NCBI RefSeq assembly: GCF_016598485.1
Contig: NZ_JAEMUW010000004.1
Coordinates: 124,001-188,000 of the forward strand
Origin: Micromonospora coerulea
GTDB lineage: Bacteria; Actinomycetota; Actinomycetes; Mycobacteriales; Micromonosporaceae
Direction of reading: 5' to 3'
Length of the DNA stretch: 64,000 nt
The stretch's first letter is position 1, and each line of letters begins with the position of its first letter. Positions 17,689-28,624 of the stretch are shown piece after piece. Position numbers and translations under genes: made by a program. The notes beneath the pieces are model-generated. The model was not told the DNA's origin and searched no databases. It saw only the letters and a list, made by a program, of their open reading frames with translations.

Positions 17689-17723
17689 CCCCCCGTAGCC
17701 GGGCAGTAGCCCGCGGCGCCCTG

Positions 17724-18556: not shown

Positions 18557-18728
18557 GCGGGGTAGCCGGGTGCGGTTCGGAATGCGTACGGGCCAGGTGA
18601 TCCGGCTTGAGAGCCGGGTTGGGCTGCCGGGGGCAATCGTCCTCCCGGATGCCCTCACGGTTGGCGACGGCTACGCCCCTACGTGGGTGCCCGTTGGTGG
18701 CCTTTCCCGATTGGAGGAAGGCCAGTGA
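18549..18728 (+). CDS. 59-aa hypothetical protein
   Basis: A small frame starting at TTG 18549, overlapping the thyX stop, and ending in overlap with the next GTG. The peptide ([31 protein letters not shown]) looks like a single SH3-like barrel, similar in style to the barrels at 9172 and 12967. Support is mainly tight operon packing. Confidence 0.55.
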
Positions 18729-19024: not shown

Positions 19025-19034
19025 GGGAAACAGC

Positions 19035-19232
19035 ATGCGACTTAGCGCGACTATCCGAGGTGCCACCCTTGGGGACCTGATGACCAACGCTCACGCGGCT
19101 TGTGTGCGGTTCTTCGGGGACACCCCGTATCAGATCATCATTCAGGATTGGGACCAGGCTTACGCCGAATACGACGAGGCCGGCACGCTTACCGGGTTCC
19201 AGTTTTCGATGCTGGCGATTAAGGCTCAGTGA
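19035..19232 (+). CDS. 65-aa hypothetical protein
   Basis: Not recognised. ATG 19035 follows AGGGGAAACAGC. The peptide is acidic and soluble (TPYQIIIQDWDQAYAEYDEAGTLTGFQF). Its stop overlaps the start of the dCMP deaminase gene. Confidence 0.65.
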   Translation: MRLSATIRGATLGDLMTNAHAACVRFFGDTPYQIIIQDWDQAYAEYDEAGTLTGFQFSMLAIKAQ

Positions 19233-19630
19233 GCCGGCCCGGTTGGGATGACTACTTCCTTGCCATCGTCCAGGCGGTAGCCCTCCGGGCTGACTGTTCC
19301 CGGCGCAAGGTGGGGGCCCTGGTGGTCAGAGACAACCGGATCGTTGCTGCCGGGTACAACGGTTCTCCCCCTGGTGGCCCTAGCTGCCTCCGGGGGGAGT
19401 GCCCCCGGGGCAACTCCACGGTTGACCCTGGCAGCTCATACGACACGGGCCCCGGTTCCTGTCACGCGGTCCACGCGGAAGGTAACGCGGTTATCTACGC
19501 CGGCCGTGACGGTTGCCTCGGGTCCACCCTCTACGTCACGGATGAACCGTGCCAAGGGTGCGGAAAGCTGGTCAGAGCGGCTGGAATTGCCCGGCTGGTC
19601 TGGCCCGGTGGAGCTATCACGCTCCCGTGA
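19229..19630 (+). CDS. deoxycytidylate (dCMP) deaminase
   Basis: A 133-residue zinc enzyme that deaminates dCMP to dUMP. Active-site motifs are CHAVHAEGNAVIYAG (zinc His and catalytic Glu) and DEPCQGCGKLVRAAGI (zinc Cys pair). GALVVRDNRIVAAGYNGSPPG is the usual N-terminal strand and substrate loop. It starts at GTG 19229, overlapping the upstream stop. With thyX it directs pyrimidines to dTMP, making dUMP as an intermediate. Confidence 0.93.
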   Translation: MSRPGWDDYFLAIVQAVALRADCSRRKVGALVVRDNRIVAAGYNGSPPGGPSCLRGECPRGNSTVDPGSSYDTGPGSCHAVHAEGNAVIYAGRDGCLGSTLYVTDEPCQGCGKLVRAAGIARLVWPGGAITLP

Positions 19631-19707
19631 GCTAAGCTTGACCACGGAACCAACAGCGCCAGTTTTTCCCTTTCTGGCGTTCCTTGCTGACACTCGGAGA
19701 GGTTCCC

Positions 19708-19737
19708 GGGGCCCCCTGGCGTATGCCGGGGGGCCCC
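19708..19737. terminator. bidirectional terminator between convergent genes
   Basis: GGGGCCCCCTGGC / GCCGGGGGGCCCC inverted repeat with a 4-nt loop (GTAT), separating the rightward deaminase operon from the leftward 42-aa gene. Confidence 0.75.
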
Positions 19738-19740
19738 TTC

Positions 19741-19750
19741 CGTTTACACG
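19741..19750 (+). promoter_or_regulatory. operator at the end of the leftward 42-aa gene
   Basis: Exact CGTTTACACG overlapping the stop codon (19744-19746) of the leftward gene. Confidence 0.6.
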
Positions 19751-19872
19751 GTGGGAGTGAACCCGCCCTTGCGGTTCCACTCGTCCAGGGCCATCCACAG
19801 CTCCCGGAAGTCTTCCCAACGCCCCTCCCGGAGCGCGTCAAAGATGGCGTCAATGGTCGCCTGAGGGTCCAT
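19744..19872 (-). CDS. 42-aa leftward gene in the early region
   Basis: A short frame preceded by AAAAAGGGGATAGGGC and read opposite to all neighbours. The peptide (MDPQATIDAIFDALREGRW, then EDFRELWMALDEWNRKG) is predicted to be two amphipathic helices, soluble and acidic. It has its own leftward promoter (19930-19965) with the conserved GTCAGCAAG leader, and a bidirectional terminator follows. Being the only leftward gene in 4.5-28 kb and divergent from a repressible rightward promoter, it may be expressed in the lysogen and could be a regulator or anti-repressor. No homology is recognised. Confidence 0.72.
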   Translation of the reverse strand: MDPQATIDAIFDALREGRWEDFRELWMALDEWNRKGGFTPTV

Positions 19873-19921
19873 GCCCTATCCCCTTTTTAGTTATCAACCG
19901 GCGGCCCGTCCGGGCCCCCGT

Positions 19922-19965
19922 CTTGCTGACATCTAAAGCTTAGGTGTTGGAACGTTTAAACGCAA
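19922..19965 (-). promoter_or_regulatory. leftward promoter with operator
   Basis: On the minus strand TTGCGT (19965-19960), 17 bp, TAAGCT (19942-19937), then GTCAGCAAG from 19930. The symmetric operator CGTTTAAACG (19953-19962) covers the -35 and spacer, so the promoter should be repressible. Confidence 0.75.
19953..19962. promoter_or_regulatory. symmetric operator in the divergent control region
   Basis: Perfect palindrome CGTTTAAACG inside the leftward promoter. Confidence 0.7.
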
Positions 19966-20012
19966 TACCGGGGGATGTGAGCCAGGCCACACCATGTTAA
20001 GGGTTGGAAAGT

Positions 20013-20058
20013 TTGACAGCGTTTACACAACCGAGTAATGTTCTCCCTGTCAGCAAGG
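20013..20058 (+). promoter_or_regulatory. rightward cassette promoter with embedded operator
   Basis: TTGACA (20013-20018), 17 bp, TAATGT (20036-20041), leader GTCAGCAAGG from 20049. The spacer contains CGTTTACACA (20020-20029), one mismatch from the operator, so repressor would block the polymerase directly. An AAGGGTTGGAAAG element lies just upstream. Confidence 0.82.
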
Positions 20059-20089
20059 AACAACCACCCCCCACCAGAAAGGCAAGACA

Positions 20090-20761
20090 ATGACTGAGAA
20101 CATCGCCCCCCAGATGACCCGTGAAGCTTGGCTGCTCAGCGCGGTTGAGGTCTTCCGCCCCCGGTTCGTTGAGGTCGGAATGCCCCTCCCGGAGCGCATC
20201 CACGTTTCCGTGGGATTCGGGTTCGGGACCAAGGCGGAGAGCGCCAACATCCTTGGTCAGTGCTGGGCGCGGCGGGCTTCCGAGGATGGCGTTAACCACC
20301 TCTTCATCAGCCCGGAGGTTGCCGACACGGCTAAGGTTCTGGCCTGCCTGCTCCATGAGCTGATTCACGCCGCTGACGATTGCGTCAACGGCCACAAGGG
20401 GGCGTTTGCTGAGGCTGCCACCCGGTTTGGCTTCACGGGTTCCCTCCTGACCCTCAACCCTTCCATTGAGCTTGCGGCGGAAATGATGGCCCTTGCCGCC
20501 AGCCTCGGGGACTACCCGCACGGTGCCCTGTCTGCCGCCTCCCGGATGCGTACCCGTACGCCGGAGCTGGTGCCGGCCGGTGGCGACGCGCCCAAGGGCA
20601 AGATTTCCTCTGGCCCGGGTACTCAGACCACCCGGATGCTTAAGCTGGTCTGCCCCGGTGGTGAGTCCTGCTGTGGCGGGTACACGGTCCGGACCACGGC
20701 CAAGTGGGTTGCCGTGGGCATGCCTTCCTGCCCGCTCGGTACGGAGATGGTGCAGGCGTGA
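20090..20761 (+). CDS. SprT-like zinc metallopeptidase
   Basis: A 223-residue protein with the zinc motif LLHELIHAADD and the SprT third ligand in GHKGAF, plus a C-terminal cysteine-rich zinc ribbon (LVCPGGESCCGGYT...MPSC). SprT-family proteases act on DNA-protein crosslinks in eukaryotes; actinophages often carry them in the early region with unknown targets. ATG 20090 follows AGAAAGG. It is driven by the strong 20013 promoter. Confidence 0.85.
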   Translation: MTENIAPQMTREAWLLSAVEVFRPRFVEVGMPLPERIHVSVGFGFGTKAESANILGQCWARRASEDGVNHLFISPEVADTAKVLACLLHELIHAADDCVNGHKGAFAEAATRFGFTGSLLTLNPSIELAAEMMALAASLGDYPHGALSAASRMRTRTPELVPAGGDAPKGKISSGPGTQTTRMLKLVCPGGESCCGGYTVRTTAKWVAVGMPSCPLGTEMVQA

Positions 20762-21087
20762 CGATCGGGAACGGGGGCCCCTCCGGGGGCCCCCTGGCCC
20801 GGAAGGGCGGAGCGTTGTACGACAGCCGCCGGAGGCAATGGGTACTGACCGGGGGAAGCCTGGCGTACTGGCTCCCGGAGCGTGGGCCCCATGTGCGCGT
20901 GGTCGTCGAGCTGGTTACCCGGGATTGGGTGTACTTCAAGGCGACCGGGGATGACGCGGGGATGACCCGGGGCCAGGTCTGGCGGGAAGGCCGCTACAGC
21001 CGCCGCGTAGTGCCCCGTGAGGCCGCCTACGTGTACGGCGGGAAGGTCCATGTGGATTGGGCTACCGTGAGCGTTAGAGAGGCTTAG
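20758..21087 (+). CDS. 109-aa hypothetical protein whose first codons form a terminator-like hairpin
   Basis: Starts at GTG 20758, overlapping the upstream stop. Codons 5-13 (NGGPSGGPL) are encoded by a hairpin of the same GGGGGCCCC-TCC-GGGGGCCCC type used as terminators elsewhere (20773-20794). The rest is a basic, strand-rich protein (RQWVLTGGSLAYWL...VVELVTRDWVYFKAT). Function unknown. If the hairpin terminates, expression would be attenuated; an alternative start downstream of it is possible but no good Shine-Dalgarno was seen. Confidence 0.6.
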   Translation: MTIGNGGPSGGPLARKGGALYDSRRRQWVLTGGSLAYWLPERGPHVRVVVELVTRDWVYFKATGDDAGMTRGQVWREGRYSRRVVPREAAYVYGGKVHVDWATVSVREA

Positions 21088-21090
21088 AGC

Positions 21091-21118
21091 GGGCCCCCTC
21101 CGGGGGGCCCCTTTCTTT
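21091..21118 (+). terminator. cassette terminator
   Basis: GGGCCCCC-TCC-GGGGGGCCC stem followed by CTTTCTTT. Confidence 0.9.
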
Positions 21119-21225
21119 GACCGTGTGGGGCGATTTTCAAACCTTCTCCACCGTCTATGAATCTACGTTACAAACACAAGCTTTGTCCAGCCCGTGTGAC
21201 GTATCCCATCGTAAGGTCTGGAAAG

Positions 21226-21271
21226 TTGACTCCGTTTAAACGGTCCGGTAGATTCTTACTTGTCAGCAGGG
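21226..21271 (+). promoter_or_regulatory. cassette promoter with symmetric operator in spacer
   Basis: TTGACT (21226-21231), 17 bp, TAGATT (21249-21254), leader GTCAGCAGGG from 21262. The spacer holds the perfect operator CGTTTAAACG (21233-21242). The AAGGTCTGG element lies upstream of the -35 here. Confidence 0.85.
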
Positions 21272-21293
21272 AGCACGACGAAGGGAAACAAAA

Positions 21294-21506
21294 ATGAACG
21301 CGCAGCCCACCACCTGGAACCCGACCCGCGCGGCCCGGATCATCCTCTGGGACCTGTTCGGGGGCGACAAGGCCCGAGCGGTCGAGATGGTGGAGGCCAC
21401 CGGCCCGGAGATGATCCGGAAGGGGATGGAGTTTACCGAGGCGAACCGGCGGCAGATGGAGGAACTGGCCGACGCTATCCGGGCGGCCAACCCCGACCAC
21501 GCCTAG
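21294..21506 (+). CDS. 70-aa hypothetical protein (cassette gene)
   Basis: Not recognised. Predicted fully helical (RAARIILWDLFGGDKARAVEM, then EANRRQMEELADAIRAANP), soluble, acidic. ATG 21294 follows GAAGGGAAACAAAA. It is a single-gene unit with its own promoter (21226) and terminator (21518). Confidence 0.75.
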   Translation: MNAQPTTWNPTRAARIILWDLFGGDKARAVEMVEATGPEMIRKGMEFTEANRRQMEELADAIRAANPDHA

Positions 21507-21517
21507 CCAACAGGAAC

Positions 21518-21537
21518 GGGGCCCCTTCGGGGGCCCC
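21518..21537 (+). terminator. cassette terminator
   Basis: GGGGCCCC-TTCG-GGGGCCCC hairpin, tetraloop TTCG, weak T-run. Confidence 0.8.
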
Positions 21538-21566
21538 AATCCGCCGGAGTGAGCTAAGCCACAGAA

Positions 21567-21576
21567 CGTGTAAACG
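21567..21576 (-). promoter_or_regulatory. operator upstream of a cassette promoter
   Basis: Exact CGTTTACACG on the minus strand, ending 2 bp upstream of the -35 at 21579. Confidence 0.65.
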
Positions 21577-21578
21577 GC

Positions 21579-21624
21579 TTCCGTTCTGATGGTTAGGTCT
21601 GTATAGTTAGTCATGTCAGCAGGG
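21579..21624 (+). promoter_or_regulatory. cassette promoter
   Basis: TTCCGT (21579-21584), 17-bp spacer ending GGTTAGGTCTG, TATAGT (21602-21607), leader GTCAGCAGGG from 21615. Confidence 0.82.
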
Positions 21625-21646
21625 AACACCAACAAAGGGAGTCACA

Positions 21647-21964
21647 ATGAACGCCACCACCACCGCCCCGATCACCACCACCAACACCGCCGTTGCCGCC
21701 CTCCGGGTGGCCGGCTACTCCCTCCGGATCACTCCGGCCTACCGGGGCGCGGTGGAGGTTGTGGCGACCCGGGAGGATGGCTCTGGCGTGGTCCTGGTGG
21801 TGGGGGAGCGGTCCAACGCCACCCTCCGGGCTACCTTCCTCCCGCTCGCGTGGCGTGAGCAGATGGGCCGCCCGGAGCTGGTTGTCCGGGGTGCCCGGGA
21901 CGTTTACCGTCACCTCGGGTGGTTCCTCTCCTGCGCTTGCTGGGATTGCACGAACGGGAACTAA
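21647..21964 (+). CDS. 105-aa hypothetical protein (cassette gene)
   Basis: Not recognised. A Thr-rich N-terminus (MNATTTAPITTTNTAV) precedes a strand-rich region and a C-terminal cysteine pair (SCACWDC). ATG 21647 follows AAAGGGAGTCACA. Single-gene unit. Confidence 0.72.
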   Translation: MNATTTAPITTTNTAVAALRVAGYSLRITPAYRGAVEVVATREDGSGVVLVVGERSNATLRATFLPLAWREQMGRPELVVRGARDVYRHLGWFLSCACWDCTNGN

Positions 21965-21973
21965 TCCCGGGCC

Positions 21974-21994
21974 GGGGGCCCCTCCGGGGGCCCC
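21974..21994 (+). terminator. cassette terminator
   Basis: GGGGGCCCC-TCC-GGGGGCCCC, weak T-run (TGGTTT). The next promoter's -35 begins 5 bp later. Confidence 0.8.
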
Positions 21995-21998
21995 TGGT

Positions 21999-22043
21999 TT
22001 GACCCCCAAGGTTTGGTTTGATACACTCATCATGTCAGCAAGT
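21999..22043 (+). promoter_or_regulatory. cassette promoter
   Basis: TTGACC (21999-22004), 17-bp spacer with AAGGTTTGGTTTG, TACACT (22022-22027), leader GTCAGCAAG from 22034. Confidence 0.82.
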
Positions 22044-22064
22044 CAGGGCAGCGAAAGGGAAACG

Positions 22065-22298
22065 ATGCTTACTCTCCGGGGCGTTCAGATTGCCTTCAAG
22101 GGCAAGGATGGCCGCACGGCCACCGTGACCATGGACCGCTACGCGGGGACGCTGCCGCCGGCCGCGTACGCCTCTGACGAGGCGTTCCGGAATCACGTTG
22201 CCTCTGCCGCCCTCGGGGCCATCATGCGGGACAGCAACTACGGCCCGGGTTGGGTGGCCGATTACCAGGTAATCGACATCCCCGACATGCACCGCTAA
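22065..22298 (+). CDS. 77-aa hypothetical protein (cassette gene)
   Basis: Not recognised. Begins LTLRGVQIAFKGKDGRTATV, strand-rich, then helical; no membrane segment. ATG 22065 follows CGAAAGGGAAACG; an in-frame ATG at 22032 lies within the conserved leader and is less likely. Single-gene unit. Confidence 0.72.
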   Translation: MLTLRGVQIAFKGKDGRTATVTMDRYAGTLPPAAYASDEAFRNHVASAALGAIMRDSNYGPGWVADYQVIDIPDMHR

Positions 22299-22310
22299 CC
22301 AGCCGGGAAC

Positions 22311-22337
22311 GGGGCCCCTCCGGGGGCCCCTTTCTCT
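22311..22337 (+). terminator. cassette terminator
   Basis: GGGGCCCC-TCC-GGGGGCCCC followed by TTTCTCTTT. Confidence 0.9.
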
Positions 22338-22355
22338 TTGTGCGATAGCTCACAC

Positions 22356-22365
22356 CGTTTACACG
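22356..22365 (+). promoter_or_regulatory. operator upstream of a cassette promoter
   Basis: Exact CGTTTACACG, 9 bp before the -35 at 22375. Confidence 0.65.
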
Positions 22366-22374
22366 CCCCCTGGC

Positions 22375-22420
22375 TGGACGCCTCAAGGTTAGGTCTGTAT
22401 AGTTACAGGTGTCAGCAAGG
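22375..22420 (+). promoter_or_regulatory. cassette promoter
   Basis: TGGACG (22375-22380), 17-bp spacer ending AAGGTTAGGTCTG, TATAGT (22398-22403), leader GTCAGCAAGG from 22411. Confidence 0.82.
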
Positions 22421-22466
22421 CCCGGGGGGAAACCTCCGGGGTTGAAAATTAAAAAGGGGAGCGGGA

Positions 22467-22718
22467 ATGTTCCAGTTCAACGGTGGTCCGATTCCGAACG
22501 ATGCGCCGGCTACGGTCACTGCGCGATTCCCGGATGGACGCCTTGTGGTTCACATCCTGGACAGCCCGGCGCGGATCGTTCAGACGGTCCACGCCACCGG
22601 GGAGCCGGTCCGGGTGGTCAGCGTTCAGAATTTCTTGACCATGGCGGATGCGGCCGGAGAGATGCCCCGGATTGCCAAGGATCAGCGGCGGAACGGGGCG
22701 AGGGTCAAGACCTGCTAA
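22467..22718 (+). CDS. 83-aa hypothetical protein (cassette gene)
   Basis: Not recognised. Strand-rich first half (NDAPATVTARFPDGRLVVHIL), helical basic end. ATG 22467 follows AAAGGGGAGCGGGA. Single-gene unit between 22375 and 22750. Confidence 0.72.
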   Translation: MFQFNGGPIPNDAPATVTARFPDGRLVVHILDSPARIVQTVHATGEPVRVVSVQNFLTMADAAGEMPRIAKDQRRNGARVKTC

Positions 22719-22728
22719 CGGCCACAAT

Positions 22729-22750
22729 GGGGCCCCCTCCGGGGGGCCCC
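22729..22750 (+). terminator. cassette terminator
   Basis: GGGGCCCCC-TCC-GGGGGGCCCC followed by TTCCCCGTTT. Confidence 0.85.
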
Positions 22751-22810
22751 TTCCCCGTTTCCTGGACCTCACCGCGGCCTGTGACCTGGACCACATCCGG
22801 CGCCCTTGGC

Positions 22811-22855
22811 TGGACATGGGAACGTTAGGTCTGTAAGCTTTAGATGTCAGCAAGG
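22811..22855 (+). promoter_or_regulatory. cassette promoter
   Basis: TGGACA (22811-22816), 17-bp spacer ending CGTTAGGTCTG, TAAGCT (22834-22839), leader GTCAGCAAGG from 22846. Its -10 and +1 region equals that of the leftward 19.9-kb promoter. Confidence 0.82.
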
Positions 22856-22879
22856 GAAGCCGCAAGAAAGGGAACGCCA

Positions 22880-23125
22880 ATGCGAATCAACACCGCTCAC
22901 CTCCCCGCCGACCTCCGGGCCCGGATGACCGATGCGATTTACGGTCACATCCTGGACGGGGCGGACGTACTGGACGCCGTGGCCCTGGCCGCCGGTGACG
23001 CTCGGGCGGAGGCCCTGGCCGCTGGTTGGGCCCCGGTAATGGTCCGGTTCGTCGGGGACACGGTGACCGCCCTCGGGCGGGAGCTGGTGGCGGACATGGT
23101 GCGGAACCTGGCTGCCGCTAGCTGA
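22880..23125 (+). CDS. 81-aa hypothetical protein (cassette gene)
   Basis: Not recognised. Helical, alanine-rich (DAVALAAGDARAEALAAGWAP). ATG 22880 follows AAAGGGAACGCCA. Confidence 0.72.
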   Translation: MRINTAHLPADLRARMTDAIYGHILDGADVLDAVALAAGDARAEALAAGWAPVMVRFVGDTVTALGRELVADMVRNLAAAS

Positions 23126-23131
23126 CACGGT

Positions 23132-23151
23132 GGGGGCCCTCCGGGGCCCCC
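23132..23151 (+). terminator. cassette hairpin without T-run
   Basis: GGGGGCCC-TCC-GGGGCCCCC, followed by a C-rich stretch, so probably leaky; the next gene has no promoter of its own. Confidence 0.65.
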
Positions 23152-23186
23152 GCCGACCCCTCTCAACCTCTCTGAAAGGCTCCGCC

Positions 23187-23423
23187 ATGACTTACCAGCC
23201 GCCGCCCCCGCCGCCGCCCTACGGGCCCCGTCCGCCCCACCAGCAGTACCCGCCGGCTAACCCGGTCATGGGCGAGGCTGCCGGACTCATCCGGGCCGGC
23301 AAGGTGGCCGTATGGGTATGGATTGCCCTGGCCGTGGTGCCCATCCTCGGAATCCTGGCCTGTTGTGGCCTGTGCGGGTTGGGTGGCGTTATCGGGGCCG
23401 GTAGCCCGTCGCCTACGCCGTAG
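23187..23423 (+). CDS. 78-aa proline-rich single-pass membrane protein
   Basis: A 30-residue Pro/Tyr-rich cytoplasmic head (PPPPPPPYGPRPPHQQYPP) followed by one hydrophobic helix (VWVWIALAVVPILGILACCGLC). This resembles the Pro-rich plus membrane-helix layout of small actinobacterial proteins near septum or secretion genes. ATG 23187 follows GAAAGGCTCCGCC. It appears to be read through from the previous cassette. Confidence 0.7.
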   Translation: MTYQPPPPPPPYGPRPPHQQYPPANPVMGEAAGLIRAGKVAVWVWIALAVVPILGILACCGLCGLGGVIGAGSPSPTP

Positions 23424-23427
23424 TAGT

Positions 23428-23448
23428 GGGGGCCCCTCCGGGGGCCCC
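23428..23448 (+). terminator. cassette terminator
   Basis: GGGGGCCCC-TCC-GGGGGCCCC followed by TTTCCCCTTT. Confidence 0.9.
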
Positions 23449-23474
23449 TTTCCCCTTTGTGGCCTACGCCACAC

Positions 23475-23484
23475 CGTTTACACG
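23475..23484 (+). promoter_or_regulatory. operator upstream of a cassette promoter
   Basis: Exact CGTTTACACG, 9 bp before the -35 at 23494, the same geometry as at 22356. Confidence 0.65.
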
Positions 23485-23493
23485 TCCCCGGAT

Positions 23494-23522
23494 TAGACAG
23501 ACCATGGTTAGGTCTGTATAGT
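23494..23522 (+). promoter_or_regulatory. cassette promoter
   Basis: TAGACA (23494-23499), 17-bp spacer ending GGTTAGGTCTG, TATAGT (23517-23522). The leader is the variant GTGCAGCAAGGAAC. Confidence 0.8.
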
Positions 23523-23565
23523 TATAGGTGCAGCAAGGAACACCACAAAACAAAAGGGGAACGAA

Positions 23566-23739
23566 ATGGTCACCAAGGGAAACGCTCGTCAGGTTCTCAA
23601 GGCTCAGACCACCCGCCGGGCGGAATGCCTGGACGCCCTGGCCGACGCGGCTGAGGCGGCTTTCCGGGACTACTGGACTGACGCCCTGGCGGATGCCGAG
23701 TCTCTGATCCGGGATGCTGAAATGGAGATGGCCCGCTAG
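23566..23739 (+). CDS. 57-aa helical protein (cassette gene)
   Basis: A short frame between a cassette promoter and terminator, preceded by AAAAGGGGAACGAA. The peptide is one long acidic helix pair (RRAECLDALADAAEAAFRDY, then DALADAESLIRDAEMEMAR). Function unknown; cassette context is the main support. Confidence 0.72.
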   Translation: MVTKGNARQVLKAQTTRRAECLDALADAAEAAFRDYWTDALADAESLIRDAEMEMAR

Positions 23740-23746
23740 TCGGGTC

Positions 23747-23767
23747 GGGGGGCCCTCCGGGGCCCCC
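23747..23767 (+). terminator. cassette terminator
   Basis: GGGGGGCCC-TCC-GGGGCCCCC followed by TTTCCCGTT. Confidence 0.88.
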
Positions 23768-23832
23768 TTTCCCGTTGGGGCATGCTAAGGTTTGAAGCGT
23801 CAGGGAATGAACCAGCCAGGGAGGTTTACAGC

Positions 23833-23943
23833 ATGTCTCGCACTATCAAGGGCACCGACCGGGACGCCATCAAGCGGGCCCGGAAGTATGAGCAGGCCAC
23901 CCGCAAGATTCGGCAGGAAATCTCCCGGGCTAACGGCCGATAG
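23833..23943 (+). CDS. 36-aa basic peptide (cassette gene)
   Basis: A very short frame after GGGAGGTTTACAGC. The peptide (SRTIKGTDRDAIKRARKYEQ, then ATRKIRQEISRANGR) is a strongly basic helix, suggesting nucleic-acid or protein binding. An AAGGTTTGAAGCGTCAGGG element about 45 nt upstream (near 23786) looks like a degenerate cassette promoter. Confidence 0.62.
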   Translation: MSRTIKGTDRDAIKRARKYEQATRKIRQEISRANGR

Positions 23944-23955
23944 GCTCCCCCCGAT

Positions 23956-24001
23956 TTGACCCCCGTAGGTTAGGTGTGTATCGTTAAGGGTGTCAGCAGG
24001 G
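23956..24001 (+). promoter_or_regulatory. cassette promoter of the DUF2637-lsr2 operon
   Basis: TTGACC (23956-23961), 17-bp spacer with AGGTTAGGTGTG, TATCGT (23979-23984), leader GTCAGCAGGG from 23992. Confidence 0.82.
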
Positions 24002-24023
24002 AACAGGGAGAAAGGGACCAGCC

Positions 24024-24677
24024 GTGAAGGGTCTTACCAGGGTTACCGGGGCCGGGGTGCTGTTGCTCACGGTGGGGGCTTTCGTCCTCAGCTTTGCCAA
24101 GCTGTACGCGGTGGCCCTCCGGGCTGGTTACGGGGACCTGGCGTGGATTTACCCCGGGATCGTTGAGGGGTTCACCACGATTGCCACCCTGGCCGCTTTC
24201 CTCCGCCACGGACAGCGCGGGGCGTGGTACCCCTGGACGGTTGGCCTTGCGGCTTTCTCTTACAGCCTGTGGGCCAACAGTGTTCCCCAGAGTGTCCCGG
24301 TTGAGGTTGTACGGGCCGTGCCCGTAATCTGTATCCCGCTATCGGTTCACATGTTCATTATCGTTGCCGGACTGGCCGACCGGGCTGCCGCCCGTGCGGC
24401 GGAGCTGGTCGCCACGGTGGAGGTTCCGGAGGTTCCGGAGTTTGACACCCTGGCCGACATGTTCCCGGTTTCTCCGGCCCCCATGGACCAGCCGGAGGCG
24501 GACCAGCCGGAGCCGGTGGAGATTGCCGACCAGCCGGAGCCGGAAGGCACCCGGACCAGCAAGCCGCGCAAGCGGGCCGCCCTGGCTAGCCCGGAGGCGT
24601 ACCTACGGCTTGCGGATGAGGCCAAGACGCCGGAGCGTCGGCAGTTCTGGCAGACCATGGCCGCGCAAGCGGTCTGA
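24024..24677 (+). CDS. DUF2637-type membrane protein
   Basis: A 217-residue protein with four membrane helices in the first 120 residues (VTGAGVLLLTVGAFVLSFAKL, YPGIVEGFTTIATLAAFL, WTVGLAAFSYSLWANSV, VPVICIPLSVHMFIIVAGLAD), matching the DUF2637/Spd-like family of actinobacterial plasmids and phages. The C-terminal half is soluble with repeated DQPEP units (about 151-180) and a helical end. GTG 24024 follows AGAAAGGGACCAGCC. In plasmids such proteins are linked to intramycelial spread; the phage role is unknown. Confidence 0.75.
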   Translation: MKGLTRVTGAGVLLLTVGAFVLSFAKLYAVALRAGYGDLAWIYPGIVEGFTTIATLAAFLRHGQRGAWYPWTVGLAAFSYSLWANSVPQSVPVEVVRAVPVICIPLSVHMFIIVAGLADRAAARAAELVATVEVPEVPEFDTLADMFPVSPAPMDQPEADQPEPVEIADQPEPEGTRTSKPRKRAALASPEAYLRLADEAKTPERRQFWQTMAAQAV

Positions 24678-24693
24678 GACAGGGAGAGCAGTA

Positions 24694-25092
24694 ATGGCGC
24701 GTCAGGTGATTACCAGGCTGGTTGACGACATCGACGGTGGGGAGGCTTCCCAGACGGTGGAGTTTGCCCTAGACGGTGTGACCTACAGCATTGACGTTAG
24801 CGACGAAAACGCGGTGGCCCTCCGGGAAGCGTTCGCCCCGTACGTTGCCGCCGGTAGCCGTACCGGCCGTGTCGGCGGAGGCGTGGCCCGGGTTGCCCGG
24901 GGGACCAGCCCGGGGGCCGGGAAGGCTAGCCGGGAGGATAACCAGGCCATCCGGGAATGGGCCAAGGCCGCCGGCTACGAGATTTCCGAGCGTGGCCGTA
25001 TCCCGGTGGACGTGGTGGAGGCGTACCGGAACCGGGGCCAGGCCCCGGAGACGCCGGCTAAGCCGGCCGGGAAGGCTGCCAAGCGCAAGTAG
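24694..25092 (+). CDS. lsr2: Lsr2-like nucleoid-associated silencer
   Basis: A 132-residue Lsr2 homologue. The N-terminal dimerisation domain is clear (MARQVITRLVDDIDGGEA, then VEFALDGVTYSIDVSDENA), as is the C-terminal DNA-binding domain with the RGR minor-groove motif (AIREWAKAAGYEISERGRIP, then VDVVEAY). Lsr2 coats AT-rich DNA and silences foreign genes. The phage copy has a lysine/alanine-rich extension ending AAKRK. ATG 24694 follows AGGGAGAGCAGTA, 17 nt after the DUF2637 stop. It could compete with host Lsr2 or help silence the prophage, which is visibly more AT-rich than its host. Confidence 0.93.
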   Translation: MARQVITRLVDDIDGGEASQTVEFALDGVTYSIDVSDENAVALREAFAPYVAAGSRTGRVGGGVARVARGTSPGAGKASREDNQAIREWAKAAGYEISERGRIPVDVVEAYRNRGQAPETPAKPAGKAAKRK

Positions 25093-25149
25093 CGGGGGAG
25101 GGCCCGGGAAACTGGGCCCAAACTTTTTCCCCGATAGGTAGGTTTGAAG

Positions 25150-25196
25150 TTGACGCGGGAACGTTTGGTCTGACATAATAAATCTTGTCAGCGGGG
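25150..25196 (+). promoter_or_regulatory. cassette promoter
   Basis: TTGACG (25150-25155), 18-bp spacer with CGTTTGGTCTGA, CATAAT (25174-25179), leader GTCAGCGGGG from 25187. Confidence 0.82.
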
Positions 25197-25231
25197 AACG
25201 CGGACAGCTTGAAAACTACAAAGGGGAAAAG

Positions 25232-25438
25232 ATGGCAAAGGCCAAGATGCCCAAGACGCCGGTTGAAATTGTCAAGCTGGCGGAGGCTCAGGGGTTCAGG
25301 GTTCAGACGATCACTCACGGGTGGTTCATCTGGGCCAAGGACGGGAGCAACCGCAAGGCTTGGATCACCCGGAACACTCACGGGCTGTGCATGCCGAACA
25401 ACCGCCAGGACGCTAAGCGGATCGGGGTTGTGTGGTAG
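25232..25438 (+). CDS. 68-aa hypothetical protein (cassette gene)
   Basis: A basic protein with a helix then strands (VEIVKLAEAQGFRVQTITHG, then WFIWAKDGSNRKAWITR), resembling in outline the HicA/dsRNA-binding fold, though no antitoxin partner is beside it, so a toxin role is not supported. ATG 25232 follows AAAGGGGAAAAG. Own promoter and terminator. Confidence 0.72.
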   Translation: MAKAKMPKTPVEIVKLAEAQGFRVQTITHGWFIWAKDGSNRKAWITRNTHGLCMPNNRQDAKRIGVVW

Positions 25439-25445
25439 AAAGTCA

Positions 25446-25470
25446 GGGGGCCCCTCCGGGGGCCCCTTTT
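25446..25470 (+). terminator. cassette terminator
   Basis: GGGGGCCCC-TCC-GGGGGCCCC followed by TTTT. Confidence 0.9.
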
Positions 25471-25490
25471 CCCCTTGTACGGACTAAAAG

Positions 25491-25500
25491 CGTTTACACG
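25491..25500 (+). promoter_or_regulatory. operator just upstream of the 25517 gene
   Basis: Exact CGTTTACACG, ending 3 bp before the TTGGAGG Shine-Dalgarno. Confidence 0.62.
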
Positions 25501-25516
25501 GTTTGGAGGATTCAGA

Positions 25517-25819
25517 GTGACTGAGTACGTGGTTGAAATCCAGGTGGAGACGCTGAGCCGGGAGCCTGCCGACGTGGTGAAGCTGGACGCCGTGGGCGGG
25601 CGGCTTGCCACCCATGAAGTAGCTATGCGGACCCACGATGCCCGGGTGTGGGTGACGGTGACCGTGGGGGCCGCCGGCCCTCCGGATGCCCTCGGGATGG
25701 CTTACGGGATCGTTGCGGGGGCCCTGGACGCCGTGGGGGAGCCGGGGGAGTACCGAGCCGCCACCGTCTGGACGGGCGGGGAGTATGACCGGCTGGTCCG
25801 GGAGGAAGCCGGAGACTGA
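25517..25819 (+). CDS. 100-aa hypothetical protein
   Basis: Not recognised. Begins TEYVVEIQVETLSREPADVV, with a sheet-helix pattern. GTG 25517 follows TTGGAGG. No cassette promoter was seen between it and the previous terminator, so it may rely on read-through. Confidence 0.7.
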   Translation: MTEYVVEIQVETLSREPADVVKLDAVGGRLATHEVAMRTHDARVWVTVTVGAAGPPDALGMAYGIVAGALDAVGEPGEYRAATVWTGGEYDRLVREEAGD

Positions 25820-25838
25820 CAGCCGCACCAGCAAGCAA

Positions 25839-25866
25839 GGGGGCCCCGGAGGGGGTCCCCTTTTTT
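25839..25866 (+). terminator. cassette terminator
   Basis: GGGGGCCCC-GGA-GGGGGTCCCC followed by TTTTTT, the best T-run of the set. Confidence 0.92.
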
Positions 25867-25901
25867 GTGGCCCGGGTCACACCGTCTAAACGGCTGCGGA
25901 G

Positions 25902-25930
25902 TAGACAGGGCAAGGTTAGGTCTGTATAGT
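25902..25930 (+). promoter_or_regulatory. cassette promoter
   Basis: TAGACA (25902-25907), 17-bp spacer with AAGGTTAGGTCTG, TATAGT (25925-25930). The one-mismatch operator CGTCTAAACG lies at 25883-25892. The transcript start is degenerate (GCGAGCAAGGAGC) and is followed by an unusually long structured leader. Confidence 0.8.
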
Positions 25931-25969
25931 TATGGATACGGGGGCGAGCAAGGAGCCCAGCCGCACAGA

Positions 25970-26028
25970 GGGAGTCCCCACCAATTGGCTCCCGCCGGTC
26001 GCAAGAGGTCCGGCGGTTGGGGATTCCC
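25970..26028 (+). ncRNA. structured 5' leader (possible cis-regulatory RNA)
   Basis: Between the 25902 promoter and the 26074 gene. The outer stem pairs 25970-25980 (GGGAGTCCCCA) with 26018-26028 (TGGGGATTCCC), 11 bp with one G-U. The inner stem pairs 25992-25998 (CCGCCGG) with 26010-26016 (CCGGCGG) around an 11-nt loop. The leader is about 140 nt against about 30 nt in other cassettes. No known riboswitch class is recognised. Confidence 0.6.
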
Positions 26029-26073
26029 ACCCGGAGTGTCAGCCCGGGGTTGAAAACAAAAAAGGGGAAAGAC

Positions 26074-26328
26074 ATGCAGAGCGTCAAGGACAAGCGGACC
26101 ATGACCGAGGTTTCCGAGATGCGCTACGAACAGGGTTCGATTGCCCCTGACGGCGGGTTCGGAATCGATTACTACACCGTGGTTGTGAGCCGCCAGGACT
26201 GGCACGCCGGGCAGTACGCGGGACGGTCCTACAAGATTGTTGACACGTACATGCACAACGCTCCCGGCAAGCCGGGGGGCTACCGGGGGCAGCGTGTAAA
26301 CAGCACCAGCAGCCCTTGGAAGGATTGA
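26074..26328 (+). CDS. 84-aa hypothetical protein (cassette gene)
   Basis: Not recognised. Tyr- and Gly-rich (GGFGIDYYTVVVSRQDWHAG, later GKPGGYRGQR). ATG 26074 follows AAAAAAGGGGAAAGAC. It lies downstream of the structured leader, which may control it. A minus-strand one-mismatch operator (CGTGTAAACA, 26293-26302) lies within its end. Confidence 0.72.
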   Translation: MQSVKDKRTMTEVSEMRYEQGSIAPDGGFGIDYYTVVVSRQDWHAGQYAGRSYKIVDTYMHNAPGKPGGYRGQRVNSTSSPWKD

Positions 26329-26334
26329 GGTAAC

Positions 26335-26356
26335 GGGGGCCCCTACGGGGGCCCCC
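26335..26356 (+). terminator. cassette terminator
   Basis: GGGGGCCCC-TAC-GGGGGCCCCC, no T-run; operator CGTTTAAACG follows. Confidence 0.75.
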
Positions 26357-26360
26357 AAGC

Positions 26361-26370
26361 CGTTTAAACG
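26361..26370. promoter_or_regulatory. symmetric operator upstream of the lipoprotein promoter
   Basis: Perfect CGTTTAAACG, 8 bp before the -35 at 26379. Confidence 0.68.
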
Positions 26371-26378
26371 GGTTTGGT

Positions 26379-26408
26379 TTGACGTCCAGACCTTACGGGG
26401 TGTACGTT
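26379..26408 (+). promoter_or_regulatory. lipoprotein-gene promoter
   Basis: TTGACG (26379-26384), 18 bp, TACGTT (26403-26408). Here GTTTGGTTTGACG spans the -35 and the GTCAGCAAGG leader is absent, so this unit differs from the standard cassette. Confidence 0.6.
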
Positions 26409-26453
26409 CCTCCGGCACGGCAAGATCAGCCCCCGTACGGAGGAAAAAAGGGA

Positions 26454-26888
26454 ATGCGCAAAACGATTGTGGGAGCCGGTTTCCTGGCCCTGGCCCTAAC
26501 CGGGATTGCTTGCGGCGGAGCCGGGAGCGACAGCAAGACGGGGGCGGAGAAAGCCGCCCCGAGCGTGGCCGTGACGGACGCCGTGAAGCCCTCCGCCAGC
26601 CAGGCCGCCAGCAAGCCGGCCGCTCCGGCTAAGCCGGCTAAGCCGCCGATCCCCACCATTGAGGATGGCACCTGGACCGTAGGGTCCGACGTGCCCGCCG
26701 GTACCTACCGGACGGTTGAAAAGGTGGACCCGTCCGCCGGCTGTTACTGGTCCATCACCAAGACCGGCAGCAACGGGGCGAACATCATTCAGAACGACAT
26801 TGTGAGCGGTGGACTGCCCCGGGTGACCTTGAAAAAGGGGCAGGATTTCGAGACGAACCGTTGCGGCGTCTGGCAGAAGATTGGCTGA
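26454..26888 (+). CDS. prophage lipoprotein
   Basis: A 144-residue secreted lipoprotein. The signal peptide MRKTIVGAGFLALALTGIAC ends in a lipobox-like cysteine (Cys20), then a Lys/Ala/Pro-rich linker (about 45-70) and a folded domain (DGTWTVGSDVPAGTYRTVEK through RCGVWQKIG) with two cysteines that may pair. Domains of this VPAGTYR...C type occur in actinobacterial surface lipoproteins. Phage-encoded lipoproteins can block superinfection by binding receptors; that role is inferred from type and context only. ATG 26454 follows GGAGGAAAAAAGGGA. Confidence 0.82.
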   Translation: MRKTIVGAGFLALALTGIACGGAGSDSKTGAEKAAPSVAVTDAVKPSASQAASKPAAPAKPAKPPIPTIEDGTWTVGSDVPAGTYRTVEKVDPSAGCYWSITKTGSNGANIIQNDIVSGGLPRVTLKKGQDFETNRCGVWQKIG

Positions 26889-26889
26889 C

Positions 26890-27057
26890 ATGACCGAGCT
26901 TGAAGAACGAATCCGGTTCATCATGGCCCGCATCGTGGGCGAGCGGAACAGGTGCGCGCTAGCCCGGGACCGGGTGGCCGTGACCATGCACGACATCCGG
27001 CTAAACACCCTCCGGGAAGCGTTGGGGGAGCCGCAGGAATGGACCAAGATTGACTAG
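26890..27057 (+). CDS. 55-aa hypothetical protein
   Basis: Short helical protein (TELEERIRFIMARIVGERNR, later DIRLNTLREALGEPQEW) starting 1 nt after the lipoprotein stop, so probably translationally coupled to it. Function unknown. Confidence 0.62.
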   Translation: MTELEERIRFIMARIVGERNRCALARDRVAVTMHDIRLNTLREALGEPQEWTKID

Positions 27058-27073
27058 CCGGTAACAGCAAGCA

Positions 27074-27100
27074 GGGGGGCCCTCCGGGGCCCCTCTTTTT
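27074..27100 (+). terminator. cassette terminator
   Basis: GGGGGGCCC-TCC-GGGGCCCC followed by TCTTTTT. Confidence 0.9.
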
Positions 27101-27116
27101 GTGCCCCACGTCACAG

Positions 27117-27126
27117 CGTTTACACG
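27117..27126 (+). promoter_or_regulatory. operator upstream of a cassette promoter
   Basis: Exact CGTTTACACG, 8 bp before the -35 at 27135. Confidence 0.65.
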
Positions 27127-27134
27127 GTCCAGGA

Positions 27135-27181
27135 TTGGACGCGGGAAGGTTGGGTCTGTATAGTTGTCCATGTCAGCAAGG
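27135..27181 (+). promoter_or_regulatory. cassette promoter
   Basis: TTGGAC (27135-27140), 18-bp spacer with AAGGTTGGGTCTG, TATAGT (27159-27164), leader GTCAGCAAGG from 27172. Confidence 0.83.
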
Positions 27182-27203
27182 AACAACTAAAAAGGGGTAC
27201 GAC

Positions 27204-27371
27204 ATGAGCGACATTCTCGCTGAGCTGATGGCCGAGGCTGGCAGCTACGACAACACCGCCGACATTGAGGCCGCCGCCGAGCTGGCCCGCAACACCCCTC
27301 CGGCGGAGTGGAAGCCCGACATCCACAGCGACGCTTACCGCGAGGCCCGCCGCTGGGTCTACGGGTACTGA
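27204..27371 (+). CDS. 55-aa acidic helical protein (cassette gene)
   Basis: Not recognised. SDILAELMAEAGSYDNTADI, acidic, ending RRWVYGY. ATG 27204 follows AAAAAGGGGTACGAC. Single-gene unit. Confidence 0.72.
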   Translation: MSDILAELMAEAGSYDNTADIEAAAELARNTPPAEWKPDIHSDAYREARRWVYGY

Positions 27372-27376
27372 GAAGA

Positions 27377-27399
27377 GGGGCCCTCCGGGGCCCCTTTTT
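27377..27399 (+). terminator. cassette terminator
   Basis: GGGGCCC-TCC-GGGGCCCC followed by TTTTT. Confidence 0.9.
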
Positions 27400-27406
27400 C
27401 GTGCCC

Positions 27407-27416
27407 CGTGTAAACG
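27407..27416 (-). promoter_or_regulatory. operator upstream of the second whiB gene
   Basis: Exact CGTTTACACG on the minus strand, between a terminator and the whiB promoter region (AAGGTAAGGTTTG near 27473, leader variant GTCGGCAAGGG). Confidence 0.62.
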
Positions 27417-27521
27417 GCCGCGGCCTGTGGCCCCGGTCACAGGCACCCCGCTTGACCAGCGGAAACCCGGCAAGGTAAGGTTTGTACGTCGGCAAGGGAA
27501 AGTTAGGAAGGGAATCCAGAC

Positions 27522-27992
27522 ATGAGCTGCCAGAGCAACCCGGACATGTTCTTTGACCCCACCCGTGAGGCCGAGGCCGCCACGGTGTGCGCCGGGTGCC
27601 CCCTGGTGGACGGTTGCCGCATCAAGGGCCAGGCCGAGGAATACGGCGTGTGGGGCGGAAGCACCCCGCTTGACCGGGCCGTTGCCCGCTTCAAGGCCAC
27701 TACGCCGGCTAGCCGGTTCCGGGTTCACGCCTTCACTACGGTTGTAGAGCTGGCCGCCGAGCGGGGCCACGAAACGCCGGCGCAAGTTGCCGCCGCTACC
27801 GGCCTGGCCTATTGGGCGGTAGCTAAGCGGATGGAGGGTAGCCACACGTACGCCGAGATGGACGCCGAGGTTTCCACCCTCCGGGCGGACGGGCTGACGC
27901 TGGCCGAGATTGGCCGCCGTACCGGCTACGACCGGAACCAGGTTTACCGGGCCGTCAACCGAATCACTCAGGCCGCCGGTATGGCCGCCTGA
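27522..27992 (+). CDS. WhiB-like regulator with HTH repeats
   Basis: A 156-residue protein. Cys3, Cys23, Cys26 and Cys32 form the canonical WhiB pattern (C-X2-C-X5-C), followed by the GVWGG turn. The C-terminal half has two HTH-like segments (ETPAQVAAATGLAYWAVAKRM and GLTLAEIGRRTGYDRNQVYRAV). ATG 27522 follows AGGAAGGGAATCCAGAC. Last rightward gene before the convergence with the lysis genes. With the 7340 gene the phage has two WhiB proteins, perhaps for early and late switching. Confidence 0.9.
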   Translation: MSCQSNPDMFFDPTREAEAATVCAGCPLVDGCRIKGQAEEYGVWGGSTPLDRAVARFKATTPASRFRVHAFTTVVELAAERGHETPAQVAAATGLAYWAVAKRMEGSHTYAEMDAEVSTLRADGLTLAEIGRRTGYDRNQVYRAVNRITQAAGMAA

Positions 27993-28014
27993 GCCGGCCC
28001 CACAACGACGAAAA

Positions 28015-28050
28015 GCCCCCCCGCCCGGGAGTTACCCGGGTCGGGGGGTT
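28015..28050. terminator. bidirectional terminator between early and late arms
   Basis: CCCCCCCGCCCGGG-AGTTA-CCCGGGTCGGGGGG flanked by AAAA and TT, between the convergent whiB and thioredoxin genes. Confidence 0.88.
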
Positions 28051-28057
28051 CATTCGT

Positions 28058-28312
28058 TTAGCGGGCGTCTAGGGCCGCATTGAGGCCAGTAACAAGGGCT
28101 TGCCCGGAACCCGTGTAAACGACATCCGAGCCGTCCAGCAGTACCACCGTGGGGATGGACCGCACGCGGTAGCGGGCCGCCAGCTCCGGGGAGCCGTCCA
28201 CGTCGACGACCTCCACCGGGACACCGTGCCGGGCCGCCACCGCGTCCGCCACCGGGCCCAACGTCTTACAGGGGCCGCACCACGTAGCGGTGAAGCGGAG
28301 AACCCGGGTCAC
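28058..28312 (-). CDS. thioredoxin-like protein
   Basis: An 84-residue minimal thioredoxin with active site TATWCGPCKTLGPV and the cis-proline SIPTVVLLDG. It could re-reduce the C-terminal thiols of the phage ribonucleotide reductase, or support tail or lysin folding. GTG 28312 overlaps the upstream stop by 4 nt. Its place at the end of the lysis/late operon is unusual for a reductase partner. A minus-strand operator lies within it (28112). Confidence 0.88.
   Translation of the reverse strand: MTRVLRFTATWCGPCKTLGPVADAVAARHGVPVEVVDVDGSPELAARYRVRSIPTVVLLDGSDVVYTGSGQALVTGLNAALDAR
28112..28121 (-). promoter_or_regulatory. operator/stoperator (in thioredoxin gene)
   Basis: Exact CGTTTACACG in the direction of late transcription. 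Confidence 0.6.
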
Positions 28313-28599: not shown

Positions 28600-28601
28600 A
28601 G

Positions 28602-28611: not shown

Positions 28612-28624
28612 TTCCTAACTTAAG

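What the first reader, a model, noticed from the sequence alone, without database searches (positions are those of the whole stretch)
19730..27500. A library of single-gene cassettes with one shared promoter, leader and terminator design
Seen directly: at least ten units repeat the same order. A -35 of TTGACN type and a -10 near TATAGT are 17-18 bp apart. The spacer ends in AGGTTTGGTCTG or AGGTTAGGTCTG. Exactly 6-7 nt after the -10 comes GTCAGCAAGG (or CAGGG), which would be the 5' end of the mRNA. A Shine-Dalgarno (AAAGGGGAA type), a 36-105-aa gene and a GGGGCCCC-TCC-GGGGCCCC hairpin follow. Promoters start at 20013, 21226, 21579, 21999, 22375, 22811, 23494, 23956, 25150, 25902, 27135, plus one reversed (19965) and one far away in the late arm (44500). 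Relaxed copies of the spacer motif lie before larger operons (8317, about 10405, 11953, 17735, 46660). Start-associated repeats are known in some mycobacteriophages (Cluster K), but I do not recognise this combined module. Inference: a plug-in system allowing independent gain, loss and expression of accessory genes, with the conserved 5' end perhaps acting in translation or RNA stability.
Basis: partly seen in the sequence, partly recalled or inferred. Interest (0 to 1): 0.88.

Follow-up and report, generated by a model that had tools for sequence, protein, structure and literature searches.

The report
Phage gene array with matching antisense RNA
A bacterial virus dormant in a soil-type bacterium carries more than a dozen small accessory gene units that nearly all start with the same short RNA tag, and it also appears to encode one small RNA complementary to that tag, so that a single RNA could control the whole set at once.

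Summary
The array is real. A ~43.7-kb prophage holds 14 units (12 in 20.0-28.0 kb, one reversed at 19930, one at 44536): SigA-like promoter, leader GTCAGC(A/G)(A/G)GG mostly 6-7 nt after the -10, Shine-Dalgarno site (SD), gene(s), usually a GGGGCCCC hairpin.

The new result concerns the leader. After the dCMP-deaminase gene (19646-19737, +) lies a hairpin-ended element complementary to leader (14 nt) and SD. In the host assembly TGTCAGCARGGRA occurs six times: five leaders and, inverted, this element. Eight distinct alleles were seen, each near tagged units. In L085 leader and anti-leader have both changed, yet match over 14 nt. Predicted pairing beats shuffled RNAs in 9 of 10 alleles (L019 fails). 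I infer a phage small RNA addressing the array through a common tag, most likely by covering SDs.

Further layers: CRP-like TGTGN8CACA sites (7 in the window, all at these promoters); 36 GTTTA(C/A)AC places, all inside the prophage; a Cluster-A-type repressor whose link to those places is uncertain.

No transcript was seen, and consensus folding gave no covariation support. Possible wider link: Cluster K1 mycobacteriophages carry an inverted Start-Associated Sequence in a predicted hairpin loop.

The parts
19633..19638 (+). -10-like hexamer TAAGCT of the candidate small RNA
   Evidence: TANNNT 7 nt before the outer stem in 5 of 5 elements, stem starts picked by hand; 6-11 nt in the 9 elements, where the hexamer was chosen to give the longest stem; no TTGACA -35 seen by eye
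19646..19737 (+). candidate trans-acting small RNA: outer stem GGAACC/GGTTCC (19646-19651/19701-19706), inner hairpin, terminator-like hairpin 19708-19737
   Evidence: 19634-19742 folds with z -4.8, 0 of 200 shuffles; without the final hairpin z -1.9, 10 of 200; conserved in relatives
19663..19673 (+). anti-SD loop TTTTTCCCTTT
   Evidence: predicted unpaired probability 1.0; in the predicted duplex at least 5 of 6 SD bases are paired in 12 of 14 leaders
19679..19692 (+). anti-leader GTTCCTTGCTGACA, perfect complement of TGTCAGCAAGGAAC
   Evidence: core shared by 8 aligned elements, which were collected by this core, so its invariance is partly by construction
19744..19930 (-). reversed unit: leader from 19930, gene 19744-19872 (42 aa)
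20013..20792 (+). unit 20049: promoter, leader, SprT-like gene 20090-20761, hairpin
21226..21536 (+). unit 21262, gene 21294-21506, hairpin
21568..21993 (+). unit 21615, gene 21647-21964, hairpin
21999..22330 (+). unit 22034, gene 22065-22298, hairpin
22339..22748 (+). unit 22411, gene 22467-22718, hairpin
22780..23447 (+). unit 22846, gene 22880-23125 and a second reading frame to 23423, hairpins
23458..23766 (+). unit 23528, gene 23566-23739, hairpin
23956..25119 (+). unit 23992, genes 24024-24677 (DUF2637) and 24694-25092 (Lsr2), hairpin of another sequence
25150..25465 (+). unit 25187, gene 25232-25438, hairpin
25866..26354 (+). unit 25935 with deviating long leader, gene 26074-26328, hairpin
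27100..27394 (+). unit 27172, gene 27204-27371, hairpin
27426..27992 (+). unit 27488 (leader GTCGGCAAGG), WhiB-type gene 27522-27992
44500..44852 (+). distant unit 44536, gene 44574-44852
19976..19991 (+). CRP-like site TGTGN8CACA, one of 7 (also 22339, 22780, 23458, 25866, 27100, 27426)
   Evidence: 7 against 0.67 expected, 0 of 100 shuffles
6681..7130 (+). Cluster-A-type immunity repressor gene
   Evidence: PDB 7r6r immunity repressor E 3e-11 over residues 2-146; PHROG repressor families
4777..48084 (.). 27 GTTTACAC and 9 palindromic GTTTAAAC places, candidate repressor sites; first start and last end given
   Evidence: none in the 20.3 kb of flanking chromosome
7222..7239 (+). motif A (GTAAGGTTTGGAACGTAA type), one of a set also at 11952, 17734, 21211, 44505 and in the spacers of the units
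   Evidence: weight matrix trained on the prophage itself; 64 hits at score 10 against 16.5 in 10 shuffles, overlapping hits included

Best explanation
The prophage carries an array of accessory transcription units whose mRNAs share one 5' address tag, GUCAGC(A/G)(A/G)GG..SD. One phage-encoded small RNA, made from its own -10 promoter (or cut from the 3' end of the early operon) just upstream of the array, pairs in two places with each of these mRNAs: its anti-leader with +1 to about +13, and its CU-rich loop with the SD. By covering the SD it most likely blocks translation of the whole set at once. Shown at sequence level: the units, the element, the complementarity, its recurrence and the matched change in L085. 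Inferred: that the element is transcribed, that it pairs in the cell, that the effect is repression, and its timing (if made with the early operon, it would silence the set in the lytic phase and leave it free in the lysogen).
For: 14-nt perfect complement to the leader, plus CCTTTCTGG complementary to the SprT unit's SD region. In the 6.8-Mb host assembly TGTCAGCARGGRA occurs 6 times, 5 leaders and 1 inverted copy, the element. Mean duplex energy with own leaders -42.3 (window), -43.4 (G160), -42.6 (G013b), -46.8 (G248) kcal/mol; shuffled small RNAs average -27 to -31; 0 of 200 shuffles reach the observed value in each of the 4. Six further alleles with one leader each: L007, G013a, L085 0 of 200; L008 1; L005 4; L019 70. 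12 of 14 window leaders pair from mRNA base 1, 11 of them in the same register of the small RNA; the SD is paired in 12 of 14. L085 has a different leader and a matching anti-leader (14 nt, 0 of 200 shuffles). The anti-SD part also follows the local SD (G013a UCCUUCCG with CGGAAGGA). A -10-like hexamer and a GC-rich hairpin flank the element on the same strand. Relatives L005-L008 lack GTTTACAC sites but keep tag and anti-tag.
Against: No RNA data. L019 has leader and inverted copy but its pairing is no better than shuffles (70 of 200). 39 control start regions of the same prophage average -30.7 but reach -43.7 kcal/mol, so SD-type purines pair with the CU-rich loop in general. The anti-leader is only partly unpaired in the predicted fold (0.0-0.97). 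Consensus folding of 6 alleles gave 1 compensatory pair out of 10, a slightly unfavourable covariation term, and did not recover the outer stem; per-allele outer stems are individually weak (13-246 of 500 shuffles as long). The alleles were collected by the anti-leader core, so its conservation is partly ascertainment; the hairpin check also flagged two ordinary units read backwards (window 22042 -, L049 1379 -). No -35 was seen. Two near SprT relatives, L083 and L084, have no such pair, nor does the SprT leader of G013b. Rfam has no match at gathering score.
Confidence: 0.74

Rival explanations
1. GTCAGCAAGG is a DNA or RNA site for a protein (for example at the transcription start), and the inverted copy after the deaminase gene is one more site.
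For: Sites in both orientations; the phage encodes two WhiB-type proteins and an Lsr2; a protein site would also drift together in L085.
Against: The complementarity extends beyond the leader to the SD, in the right order; in the 8 alleles the inverted copy sits between a -10-like hexamer and a hairpin on the same strand; the promoter scan finds nothing on the other strand there.
Confidence: 0.13
2. The inverted copy is a dead cassette leader left by rearrangement, and the common leader only reflects duplication of units or a strong start site.
For: Units do look duplicated (a 101-nt repeat family of 4 copies, 63-75% identical to the reference); the minus strand resembles a leader with an SD.
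Against: The inverted copy recurs near the start of the tagged units in 8 distinct alleles with divergent flanks; L085 changed both together.
Confidence: 0.09
3. The small RNA exists but activates or stabilises the tagged mRNAs, or acts as a sponge, rather than repressing them.
For: Pairing at the extreme 5' end could block decay; the sign cannot be read from sequence.
Against: The second pairing segment covers the SD in 12 of 14 leaders.
Confidence: 0.2

Closest known systems
Morons of temperate phages (recalled definition: an extra gene with its own promoter and terminator)
   Same: Each unit has a SigA-like promoter and usually a hairpin; genes are accessory and vary between relatives.
   Different: Here more than a dozen units share promoter layout, leader, CRP-like sites (in part) and one complementary RNA element.
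Start-Associated Sequences (SAS/ESAS) of Cluster K mycobacteriophages (PMC3203893, PMC11373665, PMC12699233: passages read; role still called unknown or unverified there)
   Same: A conserved sequence repeated before many small non-structural genes; some SAS genes have their own SigA-like promoter in the ESAS.
   Different: SAS is a 13-bp sequence 3-9 bp from the start codon; the tag here is the 5' end of the mRNA with a separate SD.
Cluster A repressor-stoperator system (L5, TipsytheTRex; PMC9283540, passages read); R4-like Streptomyces phages are said to use it too (PMC10276819, passages read)
   Same: Full-length relative of the structurally solved repressor; dozens of short dispersed sites, more often oriented with transcription.
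   Different: The candidate site is GTTTA(C/A)AC, not a Cluster A 13-mer (that 13-mer recalled); site density does not follow repressor identity.
Phage-encoded base-pairing small RNAs such as lambda OOP (recalled; PMC5869508 seen in a search listing only)
   Same: A short phage RNA antisense to phage mRNA.
   Different: OOP is cis-antisense to one mRNA (recalled); here one RNA would address an array by a shared tag.

Membership tests
Moron array | gene with its own sigma-70-type promoter | tested here: met
   -10 in 13 of 14 and -35 in 12 of 14 units
Moron array | own factor-independent terminator | tested here: inconclusive
   13 hairpin copies but weak T-tracts; terminator scan 14 against 8.7 in shuffles
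Moron array | present or absent as a unit between relatives | tested here: met
   10 of 21 genes have no match in the other fetched loci, 11 do; gene 44574 has moved with its tag
Moron array | expression in the lysogen | not testable with these tools
   no RNA data
Trans-acting base-pairing small RNA | separate locus with own promoter and terminator | tested here: inconclusive
   -10-like hexamer and terminator-like hairpin, no -35 seen
Trans-acting base-pairing small RNA | complementarity to several target mRNAs above chance | tested here: met
   0 of 200 shuffles in 4 phages; 5 of 6 further alleles at 0-4 of 200, L019 fails
Trans-acting base-pairing small RNA | conserved pairing with covariation | tested here: inconclusive
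   one independent matched change, L085; no helix covariation inside the RNA
Trans-acting base-pairing small RNA | a detected transcript | not testable with these tools
   no RNA data
Cluster A repressor-stoperator system | repressor of the HTH plus Stoperator-domain family | tested here: met
   7r6r, E 3e-11, residues 2-146
Cluster A repressor-stoperator system | many dispersed sites oriented with transcription | tested here: inconclusive
   27 GTTTACAC against 0.75 expected; 17 of the 23 in the early and late arms with transcription, p 0.035
Cluster A repressor-stoperator system | sites follow repressor type | tested here: inconclusive
   7 per 10 kb in G160 (repressor 66% identical) and G248 (57%), 0 in L005-L008 (47-50%); but few in G013b (80.5%) and G013a (55%), and 5.7 in L010 (46%)
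Cluster K SAS | GGGATAGGAGCCC 3-9 bp before start codons | tested here: not met
   leader is GTCAGC(A/G)(A/G)GG and begins 31-58 nt before the start in the 13 units measured
CRP/GlxR regulon | GTG(N)8CAC box at a promoter | tested here: met
   9 of 14 promoters against 0.11 in 2000 shuffles, which reach at most 3; consensus as in PMC10033298 (passages read)
CRP/GlxR regulon | binding by CRP | not testable with these tools
   needs gel shift or ChIP

The most novel reading that the evidence does not exclude
Some temperate actinophages run their accessory genes as an addressable set: each new gene is plugged in behind the same 5' tag, and one phage RNA complementary to that tag and the SD switches the whole set. 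The same logic would explain the Start-Associated Sequences of Cluster K mycobacteriophages, described in 2011: an inverted SAS in three K1 genomes lies in a noncoding gap, in the loop of a predicted hairpin in the two folded; in Adephagia late transcription is reported to begin in that gap, so an anti-SAS RNA would shut off SAS genes late.
Probability: 0.4. Interest if true: 0.93.

Novelty: new variant of a known kind. Interest (0 to 1): 0.85.

Why it matters
It would be a natural plug-in system: any gene that acquires the tag falls under one RNA switch, independent of its promoter details and of the phage's immunity type (relatives L005-L008 without GTTTACAC sites keep tag and anti-tag). It makes directly testable how prophages could keep accessory gene expression in step with the lytic cycle, and it offers a concrete, checkable explanation for the unexplained SAS repeats of Cluster K phages, for which RNA-seq data exist (GSE271014 is named in PMC11373665).

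Tried and rejected
Leader as plain start-site preference: does not explain the inverted copy. Motif A as a fixed spacer element: it moves and inverts; its binder stays unknown, WhiB-HTH proteins are only a guess. Known RNA family: in 4500-48400 only a tRNA reaches gathering score; around the element (L062) sub-threshold hits only. Close isolate phage: none found; of window 15001-40000 the 11 matching phage records all match within the ribonucleotide reductase gene, and all 1456 terminase matches are under 60%. Exact promoter-leader pattern in IMG/VR: 0; in 101 genomes of the genus: own only. SprT relatives L059, L060 and L077-L082 (40-48% identity): no array of tagged units seen; L078 has one isolated leader-like hit, not followed. 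Streptomyces phage Marky, Microbacterium phage Zeta1847, Arthrobacter phage Maureen: no leader/anti-leader pair found within 1.2 kb upstream of SprT, though GTTTACAC-type 9-mers are over-represented in the first two. SprT search in 394 genomes of the class: own only at 1e-45. TM4 and Pixie, right parts only: no inverted SAS within 2 mismatches nor CTCCTATCC within 1. Anti-tag pattern CTTGCTGACACYWGGA in 354 family genomes: 2 hits, both elements already known; the window's own allele and some others do not fit this pattern. Consensus fold of the element: not supported.
Full report
Setting. The window is part of a 6.8-Mb genome assembly in 136 contigs. A prophage of about 43.7 kb lies between the halves of a uracil-DNA-glycosylase gene: the first half at 4196-4612 matches the UDG family; the second half at about 48302-48775 I recognised by eye. 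It has a serine integrase, ribonucleotide reductase, terminase, portal and tape-measure genes, two WhiB-type genes and an Lsr2 gene, which mark an actinobacterial host.

Checking the observation. The leader, the promoters and the hairpins are there; leader and promoters clearly exceed chance, terminator-like hits only modestly.

(a) TGTGN8CACA occurs 7 times in 64 kb against 0.67 expected, and all 7 lie upstream of units; 9 of 14 promoters have GTGN8CAC in -85 to -46, base-shuffled stretches average 0.11. This is the CRP/GlxR consensus of actinobacteria (GTG(N)6GNCAC, GTG(N)8CAC; PMC10033298, passages read). In the relative G248 5 of 7 units have it. (b) GTTTACAC occurs 27 times, 0.75 expected, with 9 palindromic GTTTAAAC; all 36 places are inside the prophage, none in the 20.3 kb of flanks. 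(c) Gene 6681-7130 is a full-length relative of a Cluster A immunity repressor of known structure. I take the GTTTACAC places as its possible operators/stoperators, with reservations: 17 of 23 are oriented with transcription (p 0.035), and density does not follow repressor identity: G013b (80.5%) and G013a (55%) have few, L010 (46%) has many.

The anti-leader element. Besides the reversed unit 19930, the leader has one inverted copy in the array: after the deaminase gene. Reading the + strand there gives a -10-like hexamer, an outer stem, a hairpin with a CU-rich loop, the anti-leader, and a strong hairpin. The fetched relatives hold the same arrangement in G160 (same in G254), G013b, G013a, G248, L005/L006, L007 and L008, that is 8 distinct alleles with the window's; L019 is a ninth in which my hairpin check was negative and pairing fails its control. 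G248 has a further copy downstream of its Lsr2 gene. L085 is the most telling: another leader, another anti-leader, still matching over 14 nt; only one such unit was found in that contig.

Tests of pairing. Duplex energies against own leaders beat 200 shuffled small RNAs in all of 4 phages and reach 0-4 of 200 in 5 of 6 further single-leader tests. Leader sets are 14 (window), 7 (G160), 4 (G013b) and 7 (G248). Two of the window's 14 do not pair from base 1 (25935 and the reversed 19930). Own leaders scored best in 3 of 4 rows, by a small margin in the window's row; G013b's RNA pairs slightly better with G160's leaders. Controls: 39 other start regions average -30.7, the best -43.7, so the loop alone has some general SD affinity. 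No copy of TGTCAGCARGGRA exists elsewhere in the host assembly, so host targets of the exact tag are not apparent.

SprT survey. Ten SprT loci were examined for a leader/anti-leader match within 1.2 kb upstream: clear in window and L085 (0 of 200); G248 3 of 200; in G160 (0 of 200) the matching copies in that stretch are reversed units, its element lies just outside; none of 9 nt for the G013b SprT leader, although other G013b leaders keep the full tag, nor for Maureen; chance-level in L084, L083 and Zeta1847; Marky's match is a GTTTACAC repeat.

Structure. A stem search finds an outer stem of 6-8 bp starting 6-11 nt after the -10 in all 9 alleles tested, but single stems are not unlikely by chance (13-246 of 500), and the alignment-based fold did not support it. 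I therefore rest the case on complementarity, not on structure.

Gene content. Of 21 array genes 11 have relatives in the other fetched loci and 10 have none. The gene of the distant unit 44574 has relatives in G160 and G248 that sit behind the tag in the main array.

Literature. The listings of ten full-text searches showed no report of a tag/anti-tag RNA in actinophages; most subscription papers are not held and I read passages of six papers only, so this is not proof of novelty. PMC3203893 leaves open whether SAS is bound by an RNA or a protein; PMC11373665 (2024) still calls its role unknown, and PMC12699233 (2025) asks for functional tests. In the stretches read of Anaya, CrimD and Adephagia one inverted SAS (1 mismatch) falls in the noncoding gap between genes 96/97, 93/94 and 92/93; in Anaya and CrimD it is predicted as a hairpin loop CCTCCTATCC. 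PMC11373665 states that late transcription in Adephagia appears to begin between genes 92 and 93.

Verdict. A real and layered regulatory array; the shared leader is best explained as the target of a phage small RNA. Mechanism inferred, not observed.

Noticed in passing
L092:31870-31882; L094:30835-30847; L095:3682-3694: Cluster K1 phages Anaya, CrimD and Adephagia each carry one inverted SAS in a noncoding gap near the right end (stretches read only); in the first two it is predicted to be the loop of a hairpin (anti-SAS). The right parts of TM4 and Pixie lack it.
   Followed up: partly
window 4196-4612 and 48302-48775: The prophage splits a uracil-DNA-glycosylase gene; integrase is at the left junction.
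   Followed up: partly
window 7222, 11952, 17734, 46468: A second promoter-like class before large operons: TGTTGG..TAAGGTTTGGAACGTAAGG type, sharing motif A but not the GTCAGC leader.
   Followed up: partly
window 25936-26073: One unit has a leader of about 130 nt with possible hairpins instead of the tag; no Rfam match at gathering score.
   Followed up: no
window 7340-7765 and 27522-27992: Two WhiB-type proteins with a C-terminal helix-turn-helix region; possible binders of motif A (guess).
   Followed up: no
L005-L008, L036: Relatives with few or no GTTTACAC sites have other repeated early-gene motifs (GAAACTTAGATCGGAAGTG, GAAACTTCAGTCATGACC types) near start codons.
   Followed up: no
L076:475-530: G248 has a second anti-leader copy followed directly by a hairpin, downstream of its Lsr2 gene.
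   Followed up: no
window 46536-46617: A tRNA-like prediction with an undetermined, four-base anticodon (ggcg), beside a normal tRNA-Asn at 44896-44969.
   Followed up: no
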